Assembly: GCA_900321945.1 (NCBI GenBank)
Contig: ONXY01000543.1
Coordinates: forward strand, 1 to 13,387
Direction of reading: 5' to 3'
From: an uncultured Eubacteriales bacterium
Lineage (GTDB): Bacteria; Bacillota_A; Clostridia; Christensenellales; Aristaeellaceae
DNA length: 13,387 nt
The notes under the pieces were generated by a model. It made no database searches. It worked only from the letters and a program-made list of their open reading frames with translations, and was not told the origin of the DNA. The position numbers and the translations under genes were made by a program. Positions 6,150 to 10,443 of the stretch are shown here, piece after piece (position 1 is the stretch's first letter; each line of letters starts with the position of its first letter).

Positions 6150-7217
6150 ATGTCCATCAAAACCGAAATCTGGGGGAAATCCCCGAAAGGGAAAGACGTT
6201 CGCCGCTTTACCCTGACCAACGCAATGGGCGCTTCCGTTTCCGTAATCGAGTGGGGGGCCATTCTCCAGAGCATCATCGTTCCGGACGCGGGGGGGAATA
6301 TGGACGACGTGGCGCTGGGTTTTGACAGTCTGGACGCCTACCTGAAGCCCCATGGAAGCATGGGGGACACGGTCGGCCGCTACGGAAACCGCATCGGCGC
6401 GGGAAAGTTCACCATCGACGGAACCGCGTACCAGGTAGCTCTGAATGATCACGGCATAAACCATCTTCACGGCGGAAACGTCGGCTTCGCGGCGCATTTC
6501 TGGACCGGAACTCCCCTGGAGGGCGATCACGAGGATTCCGTATCCTTCCACCGGATCTCCCCCGACGGAGAGGAAAACTATCCCGGTACGCTGGACGTCA
6601 CGGTAACCTATACCTGGAACGATCAGTGCGATCTGATTATCCGCTACGAAGCCGTCACGGACAAGCCCACTCTCTGCAATCTGACCAACCACACCTATTT
6701 CAATCTGGCCGGGCACAGCCACGGCACCATTCAGGATCACGTGGTCACCATTAACGCGGACGTCGTCACGAAAGTGGACGCGCATCTGATTCCGACGGGA
6801 GCCTACATGCCCGTTCTGGGCACGCCGCTGGATCTGCGGGACGGACTGCTGGTCGAGGAGGGACTCGCGGTTATGGATTCCTGCCCTCAGATGATTCCCG
6901 CCGGCGGATATGATCACAATTTCGTCCTGGCCAAAGGAGAGTCGATGGGATTCGCCGCGGGCGTTTACCACGAGGAATCCGGCCGTTACATGGAGGTGCT
7001 GACGGATCAGCCCGCCATCCAGTTCTATACCGCCTGCACCACAAATCTCACCGGCGGCAAAGACGGCGCGTCCTATGGGAAGTATTCCGGATTCTGCCTG
7101 GAAACCCAGCACTGCCCGGATGATCCGAATCATCCCAATTTCCCCGGGACTACGATTCTCCGCCCCGGCGAAAAGTATGACACCACCACAATCTACGCGT
7201 TCCGCGCGGACGACTGA
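6150..7217 (+). CDS. galM: Aldose 1-epimerase (galactose mutarotase)
   Basis: Interconverts alpha and beta anomers of aldohexoses and some pentoses so that downstream kinases and isomerases are supplied; cytoplasmic, since no signal peptide is seen. The product has 355 residues, typical of the family. Active-site residues, by analogy with the Lactococcus enzyme, are all visible: R81 in GRYGNRIGAGKF, H107 in NHLHGG, H181 in NLTNHTYFNL, D255 in GGYDHNF and the base E318 in CLETQHCPDDPNHP. The start is set by AAGGAGA nine bases upstream. It lies 34 bp after rmuC on the same strand and is followed by a strong terminator, so it may be the last gene of the upstream transcript. Functionally it belongs with the sugar genes on the opposite strand. 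Substrate preference (galactose, glucose or xylose) cannot be read from the sequence. Confidence 0.96.
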   Translation: MSIKTEIWGKSPKGKDVRRFTLTNAMGASVSVIEWGAILQSIIVPDAGGNMDDVALGFDSLDAYLKPHGSMGDTVGRYGNRIGAGKFTIDGTAYQVALNDHGINHLHGGNVGFAAHFWTGTPLEGDHEDSVSFHRISPDGEENYPGTLDVTVTYTWNDQCDLIIRYEAVTDKPTLCNLTNHTYFNLAGHSHGTIQDHVVTINADVVTKVDAHLIPTGAYMPVLGTPLDLRDGLLVEEGLAVMDSCPQMIPAGGYDHNFVLAKGESMGFAAGVYHEESGRYMEVLTDQPAIQFYTACTTNLTGGKDGASYGKYSGFCLETQHCPDDPNHPNFPGTTILRPGEKYDTTTIYAFRADD

Positions 7218-7230
7218 TCCTCCGCTGAAA

Positions 7231-7261
7231 ACGCGCCGCGGGCATCATGCCCGCGGCGCGT
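7231..7261. terminator. Bidirectional hairpin terminator between galM and nrdR
   Basis: A perfect 14-bp GC-rich stem (7231-7244 with 7248-7261) has a 3-base loop. On the + strand it is followed by TCTTTTT; on the - strand it is followed by TTTT. It stands between the convergent ends of galM (7217) and nrdR (7277) and can serve both transcripts. Confidence 0.93.
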
Positions 7262-7276
7262 TCTTTTTCCTGCGGT

Positions 7277-7738
7277 TTACATCTTATGTTCGTCAACCAG
7301 TTTCTGAAGCTCCTGCATAAACGTCCCCAGGTCCGTGAACTTCCGGTATACCGCCGCGAACCGTACGTACGCGACGTCATTCAGCTCCTTCAGTTCCGCC
7401 ATGACCAGATCCCCGATCTGTTCCGTAGCGATCTCTCCTTCCATGGACGCGTAGCATTTCTGCTCCACCCGGGCCACAATCTCGTCGATTTCCTGCATTC
7501 TGACGGGAAGCTTGTCGCAGGCATGCACAATTCCGGCCTTGATCTTCTGGCTGTCAAACAGCTCCCGGCGGCCGTCCTTCTTCACGACGAACAGCGGGTT
7601 CATCTCCACCTTCTCGTAGGTCGTAAAGCGGCGGCCGCAGTTGATGCATTCCCTTCTCCTGCGGATGCTGTTGCCGTCGTCCGTGGGGCGGGAATCGATT
7701 ACCTTGCTGTCGGTGCAGCTGCAGTACTGGCATCTCAT
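7277..7738 (-). CDS. nrdR: Transcriptional repressor NrdR
   Basis: Zinc- and nucleotide-dependent repressor of ribonucleotide reductase genes; it senses ATP/dATP through an ATP-cone and binds tandem NrdR boxes. The product has 153 residues, the normal length. Seen: MRCxYC zinc ribbon (C3, C6, C31, C34); the invariant DSRPTDDGNSIRRRRECINCGRRFTTYE block (15-42); and an ATP-cone from about 48 (PLFVVKKDGRRELFD), with EIATEQIGDLVM and AYVRFAAVYRKF. The ATG overlaps the xylB stop (ATGA). A good ribosome binding site (GGAGG on the - strand, 7748-7752, nine bases upstream) sits inside the end of xylB. Co-transcription with xylulokinase is unusual, and the shared promoter region holds a candidate NrdR box (9284-9299), suggesting autoregulation. 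No nrd reductase genes are in the window. Confidence 0.97.
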   Translation of the reverse strand: MRCQYCSCTDSKVIDSRPTDDGNSIRRRRECINCGRRFTTYEKVEMNPLFVVKKDGRRELFDSQKIKAGIVHACDKLPVRMQEIDEIVARVEQKCYASMEGEIATEQIGDLVMAELKELNDVAYVRFAAVYRKFTDLGTFMQELQKLVDEHKM

Positions 7739-9264
7739 GCGTCCAGACCTCCGAGCTGCTTAAAGAGCTCCATGTTGGCCGTGTACAGCTTTTTATAGAC
7801 GGCGTAGACTTTCGCGTACTTCGGAACGTTCTCCGGAATCGGATCCTGAGAGGGATTCACGCGGATCATCTGACGGCAGGCTTCCTGTACGGAGGGATAC
7901 AGTCCCGCTCCGACGCTGGCGAGAATCGCCACGCCCAGCGCGGGCCCTTCCGTGTTGACAGTCGTTGCCACGGGGCAGTTCATCACGTCCGCCAGCATCT
8001 GCCTCCACAGCGGGCTCTTCCCGCCGCCGCCGCAGGCCAGCATCGTCTCAGGCGCGACGCCCATCTCAGCCAGAATGCCGAGACAGTCGTTCAGGCTGAA
8101 GCTGACGCCCTCCATAACCGCCCGGAGCAGATCCCGCCGCTGATGCATGGCGGAAAGTCCGAAGAAGATGCCCCGGCAGTCGCTGTCCAGGTGGGGCGTC
8201 CGTTCGCCCATCAGATAAGGCGCGTACAGAAGCTTGTTGGCGCCGATCGGGCTCATGGAGGCCTCCCGGTTTGTCAGTTCGTAAGGATCCACCCCCATCT
8301 GCGCCGCGACGTCCTTCTCAGCCGCGCAGAATGTATCCCGGAACCACTTCAGGCTCAGGCCGGCGGCCTGGGTCACGCCCATGACGTGCCACGCGCCGGG
8401 AACGGCGCAGCAGAACGTGTGTACGCGGCCCTTCGGATCAATGGCCAGCTTGTCCGTATGCGCGAAAACCACGCCGCTCGTGCCGATGGTGGTGAACGCT
8501 TTTCCGTCCTCCACCACGCCTGTGCCGACCGCCGCCGCCGCGTTGTCCCCGGCGCCTCCGACCACCAGCGTTTTTTCGCTCAGGCCGGTCTTCTTCGCCG
8601 CCTCCGCGGAAATATGTCCGGTCACCTCGCAGCTTTCATAAACCTTTGCCAGCAGGCTCTTGTCGATATCAAGAATCTTCAGCAGCTCGTCGCTCCAGCA
8701 GCGGTTCGGAACGTCCAGCATCTGCATGCCGCTGGCGTCGGAAACCTCCGTAGCGTAATCGCCAGTCAGAATAAAGCGGACGTAATCCTTGGGAAGCAGC
8801 ACGTGCCGGCAGCGGGCATAGTTTTCCGGTTCATGGTTGCGGACCCAGATCAGCTTGCCGAGGGTGAATCCGGGCAGAGCGGGATTGGCCGTAATCCGGA
8901 TCAGATTGTCGTAGCCGACCTTTTCCGTAATCTCCGCGCACTCCTTCGCGGTCCGCTGGTCGCACCAGATAATGGAGGGCCGGATCACCTGATTCTCCCC
9001 GTCGAGCATCACCAGGCCGTGCATCTGGCCGCTGATGCCCAGAGAAACGACATCCTCCGGATTGACTCCGCTTTTGTTCAGTACGGTCGAAATCGTGGAA
9101 AGCGCGGCGTTGGCCCAGTCGGCGGGATCCTGTTCCGCCCAGCCGTTCTGCGGCTGATACATGGGATACTCCACAGTCGCGGAGGCCATGGCTTTACCGG
9201 TCTGGTCGAACAGTACGGTCTTGGTTCCCGACGTACCCAGATCAATGCCCAGTACGTATTTCAT
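7735..9264 (-). CDS. xylB: Xylulokinase (FGGY family carbohydrate kinase)
   Basis: Phosphorylates D-xylulose with ATP to xylulose 5-phosphate, bringing xylose into the pentose phosphate pathway; cytoplasmic. The product has 509 residues, typical of XylB. Seen: N-terminal phosphate-binding motif GIDLGTSGTKTVLFD (6-20); ISGQMHGLV (77-85) and WCDQRT (100-105), which mark the xylulokinase branch of FGGY; GFTLGKLIWVRNHEP (132-146); GGAGDNAAAAVGTG, whose D240 is the expected catalytic base; and GGGGKSPLWRQMLAD near the C-terminus for nucleotide binding. It follows the GH10 xylanase gene on the same strand but has its own perfect-consensus promoter. Its stop overlaps the nrdR start. The ribosome binding site is modest (GGGAG twelve bases upstream), and a cre-like sequence overlaps the start codon. 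Glycerol or other FGGY kinase activity is less likely given QMHG and the xylan context. Confidence 0.95.
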   Translation of the reverse strand: MKYVLGIDLGTSGTKTVLFDQTGKAMASATVEYPMYQPQNGWAEQDPADWANAALSTISTVLNKSGVNPEDVVSLGISGQMHGLVMLDGENQVIRPSIIWCDQRTAKECAEITEKVGYDNLIRITANPALPGFTLGKLIWVRNHEPENYARCRHVLLPKDYVRFILTGDYATEVSDASGMQMLDVPNRCWSDELLKILDIDKSLLAKVYESCEVTGHISAEAAKKTGLSEKTLVVGGAGDNAAAAVGTGVVEDGKAFTTIGTSGVVFAHTDKLAIDPKGRVHTFCCAVPGAWHVMGVTQAAGLSLKWFRDTFCAAEKDVAAQMGVDPYELTNREASMSPIGANKLLYAPYLMGERTPHLDSDCRGIFFGLSAMHQRRDLLRAVMEGVSFSLNDCLGILAEMGVAPETMLACGGGGKSPLWRQMLADVMNCPVATTVNTEGPALGVAILASVGAGLYPSVQEACRQMIRVNPSQDPIPENVPKYAKVYAVYKKLYTANMELFKQLGGLDA

Positions 9265-9274: not shown

Positions 9275-9283
9275 CACTCCCGA

Positions 9284-9299
9284 ACACAAAATATAGTGG
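9284..9299. promoter_or_regulatory. Candidate NrdR box in the xylB-nrdR leader
   Basis: On the + strand the site reads ACACAAAATATAGTGG. Against the published NrdR-box consensus acaCwAtATaTwGtgt it fits 14 of 16 positions. It lies just downstream of the predicted transcription start of the operon that encodes NrdR itself. NrdR boxes usually occur in pairs; a half-site (TTGTGG, 9324-9329) is in phase about 30 bp away, centre to centre, but the rest of that second box is poor. Confidence 0.55.
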
Positions 9300-9314
9300 T
9301 ATCCAGATAATTTG

Positions 9315-9343
9315 ATTATAGCCTTGTGGTTTTCTCCTGTCAA
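9315..9343 (-). promoter_or_regulatory. Perfect-consensus sigma-A promoter for xylB-nrdR
   Basis: On the - strand TTGACA (9343-9338), a 17-base spacer and TATAAT (9320-9315) match both housekeeping hexamers exactly. Transcription would start near 9308, giving a leader of about 43 bases. An imperfect palindrome, ATAAT-TTG-ATTAT (9307-9319), overlaps the -10 element. A promoter this strong usually needs a repressor to be regulated. Confidence 0.88.
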
Positions 9344-9366: not shown

Positions 9367-10443
9367 TCAGACGGAATCCGGATCCGCCACGGCCCAGAAG
9401 GCAGGCTTGGGATTCCCGCTTCCGTCGAAGAGCAGCGGATATTCCTTCGCCCGCCAGCTCATCCGGTCCGTCACGCCCCAGACCTGCACCGCCTCGATCT
9501 GTCCGCTTCGGCTCCGGAGCAGCTTCATCAGATTCGCGTAAAACAGCGCCTGCGTGCGGAAGGCGGTTTCCGTGTTTCCGGATGTACCGACGTCCAGCTC
9601 GCTCACACGCAGTTTCAGCCCGAGGCTCCCGATGTCGTCCAGCGCGTCGCGGATCATGATCAGGGACGGAAAGCCGGTGCTGTGATGCATCTGGAATCCG
9701 TATCCGTCGATATTCCCTTCGGCGGCGAGCCTGTCAAGCAGGCTCCGGATTCCTTTCCTTTTTCCCGCGGCCGCGGTGTTGTAGTCGTTGTAATAGAGCA
9801 GCGTACCTTCCGGCGCGTATTTTCTGGCCAGCTCAAACGCTCTCTCCGGATAGTCCTCCCCGATAATCTCCAGCCAGCGCGAATTCCGGAGCTTTCCGGT
9901 TCCGTCGTCGACCGCCTCGTTCAGAACGTCCCAGGAAACGACCACCCCCGGAAAATTCTCCTCCATGTACGTCATGACGCCGCGGATATAGTTTTCCAGC
10001 CGTCCCAGCATGACATCCCGGCTTACCGCCGGGGCGGACGCGTCGTATCCTTCATGGAAAAACGCCTCCGGCGTCTGGCTGTGCCAGACGAGCACGTGCC
10101 CGTGAACCTTCAGCCCGTTGCTCTGCGCGAACCGGAGCAGCGGCCCGGCCGCGTCAAACCGGACCGCCGCGGCCGTCTCGTCCTCCTCCGCGAGCTTTCT
10201 GCTCGCGGAAACGTCGAGTACCGCGTCCGGTTTCAGTTCGTTCTCCGGCGTCAGAATGCTGAACTGCGCTTTGATCAGGCGCATCATTCCGATGTCGCGG
10301 AACGCGGACTGCGGCGCCGCCGCGCCGAAATCGAAATGCTCCGCGTAAATCTCCTTCAGGGACGGCAGATCCTCCGCGCGGGCGGCCGGGCCGAAAACCG
10401 GCAGGCAGAAAACGCAGATCAGGCTCAGGATCCTTCGGATCAT
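9367..10443 (-). CDS. Secreted endo-1,4-beta-xylanase, glycoside hydrolase family 10
   Basis: Retaining endo-xylanase that cuts internal beta-1,4 bonds of xylan outside the cell. The product has 358 residues: a Sec signal peptide (MIRRILSLICVFCLPVFGPAARA, likely cut after A23) and one GH10 barrel with no carbohydrate-binding or anchoring domain. Seen: TPENELKPD (65-73), HGHVLVWHSQTPEAFF (114-129), the acid/base glutamate E176 in WDVLNEAVDD, YYNDYN (217-222), the nucleophile E282 in RVSELDVGT, and VWGVTDRMSWR near the end. A strong AGGAGG (10453-10458) lies nine bases before the ATG. No promoter was found in the 90 bases upstream, which instead hold the binding-protein terminator and a GC-rich hairpin, so expression is probably by read-through from the binding-protein gene. 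The neighbouring transporter and xylB support a xylan role. Confidence 0.95.
   Translation of the reverse strand: MIRRILSLICVFCLPVFGPAARAEDLPSLKEIYAEHFDFGAAAPQSAFRDIGMMRLIKAQFSILTPENELKPDAVLDVSASRKLAEEDETAAAVRFDAAGPLLRFAQSNGLKVHGHVLVWHSQTPEAFFHEGYDASAPAVSRDVMLGRLENYIRGVMTYMEENFPGVVVSWDVLNEAVDDGTGKLRNSRWLEIIGEDYPERAFELARKYAPEGTLLYYNDYNTAAAGKRKGIRSLLDRLAAEGNIDGYGFQMHHSTGFPSLIMIRDALDDIGSLGLKLRVSELDVGTSGNTETAFRTQALFYANLMKLLRSRSGQIEAVQVWGVTDRMSWRAKEYPLLFDGSGNPKPAFWAVADPDSV

What the first reader, a model, noticed from the sequence alone, without database searches (positions are those of the whole stretch)
9284..9299. NrdR box in the leader of an operon that encodes NrdR together with xylulokinase
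ACACAAAATATAGTGG fits the NrdR-box consensus at 14 of 16 positions and lies about 9 to 24 bases after the predicted start of the xylB-nrdR transcript. If real, NrdR represses its own operon and with it a pentose kinase, tying pentose entry (xylulose 5-phosphate to ribose 5-phosphate and PRPP) to the nucleotide state sensed by the ATP-cone. NrdR is normally known for ribonucleotide reductase genes, so a catabolic kinase under it would be new as far as I know.
Basis: partly seen in the sequence, partly recalled or inferred. Interest (0 to 1): 0.72.

Follow-up and report, generated by a model that had tools for sequence, protein, structure and literature searches.

The report
NrdR operator controlling xylulokinase–nrdR operon
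In a group of gut Clostridia, the regulator that normally shuts off DNA-precursor synthesis appears to sit on the switch of an operon holding its own gene and a sugar kinase, so sugar-kinase supply may be tied to the cell's DNA-precursor level.

Summary
ACACAAAATATAGTGG (9284-9299) matches the NrdR-box consensus at 14 of 16 positions, the only such hit in the window (0 in 200 shuffles), behind a 12/12 sigma-70 promoter. A matrix from boxes before nrdD in relatives scores it 19.2 bits; the window's next best site scores 3.0.

A second arm, CCACAA, abuts the -10 element 30 bp upstream (9324-9329). Arm and box occur together in 22 of 32 xylB-nrdR loci and in none of 8 close relatives with nrdR elsewhere. 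Spacers of 13-16 bp fit NrdR box pairs. A composite pattern made from these leaders occurs in 28 of 308 family genomes, once each, always before xylB.

Best reading: NrdR represses its own operon, and the first gene, usually the only above-cutoff xylulokinase, goes with it. Whether xylB control is purpose or by-product is unresolved; ten linked loci lack the operator. Binding and repression are inferred, not shown. A second non-RNR candidate target turned up: an uncharacterised gene followed by a phosphosugar mutase.

The parts
9284..9299 (-). Strong NrdR box, CCACTATATTTTGTGT on the transcribed strand, about +10 to +25
   Evidence: 14/16 to consensus, 0 in 200 shuffles; 19.2 bits with nrdD-trained matrix; conserved in 22 of 32 linked loci
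9314..9329 (-). Second, degenerate NrdR box: left arm CCACAA (9329-9324) conserved, right arm replaced by the -10 hexamer
   Evidence: CACAA invariant in 22 of 22 box loci, 29-32 bp upstream of the strong box; [AC]CACAA-N3-TATAAT absent in 10 of 10 linked loci without box and 8 of 8 close unlinked loci
9338..9343 (-). -35 element TTGACA
9315..9320 (-). -10 element TATAAT
   Evidence: found in 22 of 22 box loci
9277..9281 (-). Likely ribosome-binding site GGGAG of xylB
   Evidence: read from sequence
7735..9264 (-). xylB, xylulokinase (FGGY family, 509 aa), first gene of the operon
   Evidence: TIGR01312 575 bits, cut-off 380; PF00370/PF02782
7748..7752 (-). Likely ribosome-binding site GGAGG of nrdR, inside the end of xylB
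   Evidence: read from sequence
7277..7738 (-). nrdR, Zn-ribbon/ATP-cone repressor (153 aa), overlapping the xylB stop by 4 bp (ATGA)
   Evidence: TIGR00244 181 bits, cut-off 125; PF22811 + PF03477; PDB NrdR 9fvr E=5e-38
7230..7262 (.). Hairpin between the convergent galM and nrdR; terminator-like on the + strand, possibly serving both
   Evidence: 15-bp stem, reported for + strand only

Best explanation
The leader is a two-box NrdR operator. A strong 16-bp box lies in the first transcribed bases; a second box, of which only the upstream arm CCACAA survives, overlaps the -10 element 30 bp upstream (14-bp spacer, about three helix turns centre to centre). Inferred mechanism, by analogy with studied NrdRs: when ATP and dATP are bound, an NrdR tetramer grips both boxes, covers the -10 and start region and blocks RNA polymerase. 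Because xylB and nrdR overlap and no separate nrdR promoter was found, NrdR would limit its own synthesis and the xylulokinase with it. Shown by sequence: boxes, spacing, promoter, gene order, conservation, matching boxes before nrdD in relatives. Inferred: one transcript, binding, repression, direction of response.
For: Unique hit in the window and 0 of 200 shuffles. 19.2 bits with a matrix trained on 14 nrdD-upstream boxes, whose own leave-one-out scores are 12.1-23.5; 0 of 5000 shuffled leaders reach it. Box at rank 1 of its whole locus in 22 of 22 box loci including the window. Half-box and box carry 1.0-2.0 bits per position; most positions between the -10 and the box carry 0.1-0.8, except two A's just before the box (1.3, 1.7). 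The two elements are present or absent together: 22 of 22 against 0 of 10 and 0 of 8. In relatives' nrdD leaders, 14 of 22 show a box followed 15-17 bp later by a weaker one ending in the TTGAC of a likely -35. Composite operator in 28 of 308 family genomes, 0 reversed-pattern controls, 28 of 28 just before xylB. Spacers of 13-16 bp agree with the 14-17 bp that NrdRs bind (PMC12051234, passages). An NrdR box over a -10 is described in P. aeruginosa RNR promoters (PMC4409342, passages). NrdR often controls its own gene (PMC9110341, abstract).
Against: No binding or expression data. Ten of 32 linked loci lack the operator, five of them inside the clade that holds the box loci. The weak box keeps only one arm; in E. 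coli nrdAB a predicted box over the -10 turned out not to make a good NrdR site (PMC12176259, passages). The window's own genome is not held, so its nrdD promoter could not be read. nrdD training boxes were picked by consensus match; 6 of 22 nrdD loci had no box of 13 or more matches. The 22 box rows were chosen because they have the box, and the composite pattern was made from them.
Confidence: 0.82

Rival explanations
1. Passenger version: the operator is kept for nrdR autoregulation; co-repression of xylB is a by-product of gene order.
For: In 8 close relatives with nrdR elsewhere, xylB has no box. In 6 of those 8 (G019, G020, G022-G024, G026) the stand-alone nrdR promoter carries a box-like element over its -10; 3 of the 6 score 13.8-15.7 bits, the others 6.3-8.1. 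Autoregulation of nrdR is known (PMC9110341).
Against: The other 2 of 8 (L134, L139) show no such element. xylB stays first in the operon in all 22 box loci although it is the only above-cutoff XylB in 17 of 18 genomes examined (FGGY kinases below the cut-off exist). A second sugar-phosphate gene pair also has an NrdR-like box.
Confidence: 0.5
2. Purpose version: control of xylB is selected, so that high dATP slows feeding of xylulose 5-phosphate into ribose 5-phosphate and PRPP.
For: Operator before xylB in 28 of 308 family genomes; similar box before an uncharacterised gene in 21 of 308, followed by a phosphosugar mutase in 19 of those 21.
Against: Ten linked loci do without it. No above-cutoff xylose isomerase by TIGR02630 or TIGR02631 in 18 genomes, one sub-cutoff match in G011, so flux through XylB is uncertain. 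No metabolic data.
Confidence: 0.35
3. Another DNA-binding protein, not NrdR, uses this palindrome.
For: The palindrome is assigned by likeness only; no binding data.
Against: Like motif and spacing before nrdD in relatives' genomes; nrdR is in the operon itself; two-box spacing fits NrdR.
Confidence: 0.08
4. The site is an RNA hairpin in the 5' leader or a chance AT-rich palindrome.
For: A dyad can fold as RNA.
Against: The conserved half-box lies upstream of the inferred start and would not be transcribed; chance is made unlikely by shuffles and conservation.
Confidence: 0.02

Closest known systems
NrdR-box pairs before ribonucleotide reductase operons (E. coli nrdHIEF, nrdDG, nrdAB; Listeria, Streptococcus)
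   Same: 16-bp dyad with consensus acaCwAtATaTwGtg (PMC4009431, passages), two boxes, 14-17 bp apart, overlapping promoter elements
   Different: Target is xylB-nrdR; one box is reduced to a half-site fused with the -10
nrdRJ operon of Streptomyces coelicolor
   Same: NrdR boxes before an operon that holds nrdR (PMC12051234, passages); NrdR often controls its own gene (PMC9110341, abstract)
   Different: There the partner gene is nrdJ, a ribonucleotide reductase (recalled); here a sugar kinase
NrdR box before topA in Pseudomonas aeruginosa
   Same: Non-RNR target with an NrdR box (PMC4409342, passages)
   Different: Single box, and NrdR acts as activator there; here a pair placed for repression
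Proteobacterial NrdR regulons (196-genome comparative study)
   Same: Same repressor family
   Different: NrdR was never found under autoregulation there (PMC5343134, passages)

Membership tests
NrdR repressor family | N-terminal Zn ribbon and C-terminal ATP-cone over full length | tested here: met
   PF22811 71.8 bits, PF03477 87.5 bits; TIGR00244 181 bits over residues 1-147; NrdR structures, best E=5e-38
NrdR repressor family | ATP/dATP-dependent DNA binding | not testable with these tools
   needs biochemistry
NrdR operator | 16-bp palindromic box fitting the consensus | tested here: met
   14/16, 19.2 bits
NrdR operator | second box 14-17 bp away | tested here: inconclusive
   spacing met (14 bp in the window; 13-16 in 22 loci), but only the upstream arm of the second box is conserved
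NrdR operator | overlaps the RNA polymerase site | tested here: met
   weak box contains the -10, strong box about +10 to +25
NrdR operator | same motif before RNR genes of the same genomes | tested here: met
   16 of 22 nrdD loci examined (of 30 returned) had a box with at least 13/16 in the best pair; relatives only, own genome not held
NrdR operator | binding by NrdR and derepression on its loss | not testable with these tools
   no experiment
Xylulokinase XylB | equivalog score above curated cut-off | tested here: met
   TIGR01312 574.9 vs 380.25
Xylose catabolic operon (xylAB) | xylose isomerase partner in the genome | tested here: inconclusive
   no above-cutoff TIGR02630 or TIGR02631 match in 18 relatives; these are mostly draft metagenome assemblies and other isomerase types were not sought; own genome not held

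The most novel reading that the evidence does not exclude
In this clade NrdR is not an RNR-only regulator but a dNTP-responsive brake on sugar-phosphate supply as well: its regulon takes in nrdD, the xylulokinase-nrdR operon, and an uncharacterised gene followed by a phosphosugar mutase, so that dATP sensed by the ATP-cone sets how much sugar is committed to the pentose and nucleotide pathways.
Probability: 0.3. Interest if true: 0.75.

Novelty: new variant of a known kind. Interest (0 to 1): 0.52.

Why it matters
NrdR is described as a ribonucleotide-reductase regulator; in the passages I saw, topA is its one tested non-RNR target. A conserved NrdR-type operator on an operon that pairs nrdR with a genome's usually single above-cutoff xylulokinase would widen its reach to carbon metabolism and gives a directly testable link between dATP sensing and pentose phosphate supply. 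It also documents an operator in which a promoter hexamer takes the place of one arm of a box, seen here at the -10 and, in relatives' nrdD leaders, at a likely -35.

Tried and rejected
Own-genome scan: not possible, no genome held. Class I/II RNR (PF02867) as further targets: 0 of 20 genomes. RNA hairpin explanation set aside because the half-box would not be transcribed. Internal promoter for nrdR: none by scan in window 7000-8000, none by a simple pattern over the last 60 bp of xylB plus the gap in 32 of 32 linked loci. Solo nrdR promoters as a clean second copy of the operator: only partly convincing, and absent in 2 of 8. The first family scan used a wrong spacing range and found 1 of 300 genomes; the corrected range gave 28 of 308. 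One box (L108) in the first training set lies about 800 bp before its nrdD; it was replaced by L129 and the window's score hardly moved (19.0 to 19.2; the pseudocount was also changed). Papers holding both nrdR and xylB: 3, one seen at passages (PMC7051946: NrdR and XylR regulons listed apart), two not opened (PMC8645129, PMC3212961). No paper in the library held NrdR, NrdR box and xylulokinase together. Other literature searches, listings only unless cited. No paper was read whole. Rodionov and Gelfand 2005 was not seen. On rechecking, confidence in the best explanation was lowered from 0.85 to 0.82 because the E. coli nrdAB result had been left out, and the other-protein rival raised from 0.07 to 0.08.

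Full report
What was checked. It is the only 14/16 match to the NrdR-box consensus in the window, with none in 200 dinucleotide shuffles. The promoter before it is a perfect TTGACA-17-TATAAT. The two genes are a xylulokinase (TIGR01312, 575 bits) and NrdR (TIGR00244, 181 bits), overlapping by 4 bp. No promoter-like site was found in 7000-8000; a hairpin follows nrdR, reported as terminator-like on the + strand only.

Relatives. One scan of genome contigs with XylB gave 80 loci (the best 80 of 201). In 31 of them nrdR lies downstream of xylB on the same strand, 32 with the window. The gap is -4 to 117 bp in 29 of 32 and 322, 392 and 633 bp in L035, L036 and L038. In 22 of these 32 (21 loci plus the window) a box of the form CCACTATATTTTGTGK or a near variant begins 30 to 35 bp before the xylB start. 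In 8 close relatives (81-85% identical XylB: L025, L026, L028, L029, L030, L032, L033, L037) nrdR lies elsewhere in the genome and xylB has no box. Ten linked loci also lack it (L007, L015, L021, L023, L027, L034-L036, L038, L039); L023 has a different box-like site over its -10 scoring 11.1 bits. The other 41 of the 49 loci without nrdR are more distant and some are cut short downstream of xylB.

Phylogeny. On a tree of 51 of the 81 XylB proteins (the window and L001-L050), the 22 box loci sit in one supported clade of 27 rows together with five linked loci without box; the other five boxless linked loci lie outside it. Many inner branches are open, so gain and loss cannot be ordered firmly.

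The second element. Aligned on the -10, the 22 leaders show an invariant CACAA three bases before TATAAT. Between the -10 and the strong box most positions carry 0.1-0.8 bits, except two A's just before the box. The arm begins 29-32 bp before the strong box (30 in 11, 31 in 8, 32 in 2, 29 in 1), a spacer of 13-16 bp. [AC]CACAA-N3-TATAAT is present in 22 of 22 box loci, in 0 of 10 linked loci without box and in 0 of 8 close unlinked loci. NrdRs bind box pairs 14-17 bp apart, and four-turn spacings too (PMC12051234, passages). Boxes over promoter hexamers are described: the -35 in S. pneumoniae nrdDG and the -10 in P. aeruginosa (PMC4409342, passages). As a caution, in E. coli nrdAB the predicted box over the -10 did not make a good site; the true pair lies downstream (PMC12176259, passages).

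Is it NrdR's motif in these genomes? The 20 genomes examined have class III RNR (NrdD match in 20 of 20, over the cut-off in 19) and no class I/II large subunit (0 of 20). Upstream of nrdD, 16 of 22 loci examined (of 30 returned) have a box of at least 13/16, often with the core CACAAGATATWGT. In 14 of 22 a weaker box ending in TTGAC, a likely -35, follows 15-17 bp later. L104, L107, L108, L114, L116 and L118 had no box of 13 or more. A matrix from 14 nrdD-upstream boxes scores them 12.1-23.5 when each is left out, and scores the window's box 19.2; the next best window position scores 3.0 and the best of 5000 shuffled leaders 16.7. With a first version of this matrix the leader site ranked first in its locus in 26 of 32 linked and 3 of 49 unlinked loci; four of those 26 are weak or misplaced sites in loci counted as boxless (L007, L021, L023, L036).

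Family-wide scan. A composite pattern made from these leaders was run over the 308 held genomes of the family: 28 genomes had one match each and no genome matched the reversed control. All 28 matches lie 16-23 bp before a xylB start. nrdR lay beyond the fetched flank in those 28, so linkage was not rechecked there; at least 12 are genomes of loci already counted (G001-G012). A looser single-box pattern gave 36 forward-strand hits in 20 genomes, xylB boxes included, against 6 for the reversed control.

How it probably works. Inferred from studied NrdRs: ATP/dATP-loaded tetramer on both boxes, polymerase excluded from the -10 and start. The result would be negative autoregulation with xylB in the same transcript. 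Whether xylB is the point or a passenger cannot be decided here. For passenger: in 6 of 8 close genomes with separate nrdR, nrdR has a box-like element over its own -10, convincing by score in three; in the other two (L134, L139) there is none. For purpose: this is the only above-cutoff XylB in 17 of 18 genomes (related kinases below the cut-off exist), and another gene pair outside RNR has a similar box. Against purpose: no above-cutoff xylose isomerase in 18 genomes by two models, and ten linked loci live without the operator.

A second candidate target. CCACAANATNTAGTRT seven bases before a TTGAC occurs in 21 of 308 genomes, no reversed controls. It begins 84-113 bp before an uncharacterised protein of about 177 aa in 21 of 21, with a phosphosugar mutase further down in 19 of 21 (no hit within the flank in L226 and L232). 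In one example (L170) the protein has no Pfam or NCBIfam match and the mutase matches PGM_PMM domains. Distant homologues L184-L187 have no convincing box. A conserved stretch upstream of that box (TTACAAAAAGTT...) is not NrdR-like and is unexplained.

Against the literature. [quoted passage not shown] topA is a tested non-RNR target (PMC4409342, passages), and other targets have been predicted in Lactococcus (PMC7051946, passages). I found no paper linking NrdR with xylulokinase in the open library (two of three co-mentions not opened), which lacks most subscription papers. Verdict: a real, conserved NrdR-type operator; a new variant of NrdR autoregulation with a sugar kinase in the operon.

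Noticed in passing
L170-L182, L217-L237 (upstream of the ~177-aa YKPxFQYxFRP protein): NrdR-like box before a likely -35 of an uncharacterised gene followed by a PGM/PMM-family mutase; 21 of 308 family genomes by pattern. Also a conserved TTACAAAAAGTT stretch upstream of the box with no explanation.
   Followed up: partly
L154 277-324 (G012:C41:8776-8823): NrdR box pair, 21.0 and 17.5 bits, 32 bp apart, before a small ORF and a helix-turn-helix-like ORF (by eye); the surroundings may be mobile.
   Followed up: no
L095 1501-1516 (G017:C14): Box between a ParA-like gene and a divergent dGTP triphosphohydrolase-like gene (names by eye from the translation, no family search), with a weaker partner 30 bp away.
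   Followed up: no
L137, L138, L140, L146, L150, L153: Stand-alone nrdR promoters share CAAAATGTGGTATAAT-like sequence, partly NrdR-box-like, over the -10.
   Followed up: partly
nrdD leaders among L104-L123 and L129: Weak NrdR box whose right arm is a likely -35 hexamer (ATATTGACT), mirror of the xylB leader where the -10 replaces an arm.
   Followed up: yes
18 genomes G001-G012, G019, G020, G022-G024, G026: Xylulokinase present but no above-cutoff xylose isomerase by TIGR02630 or TIGR02631.
   Followed up: no
window 9367-10443 (-): GH10 xylanase gene ends about 24 bp before the xylB -35, with no terminator reported between, so read-through into xylB is possible.
   Followed up: no
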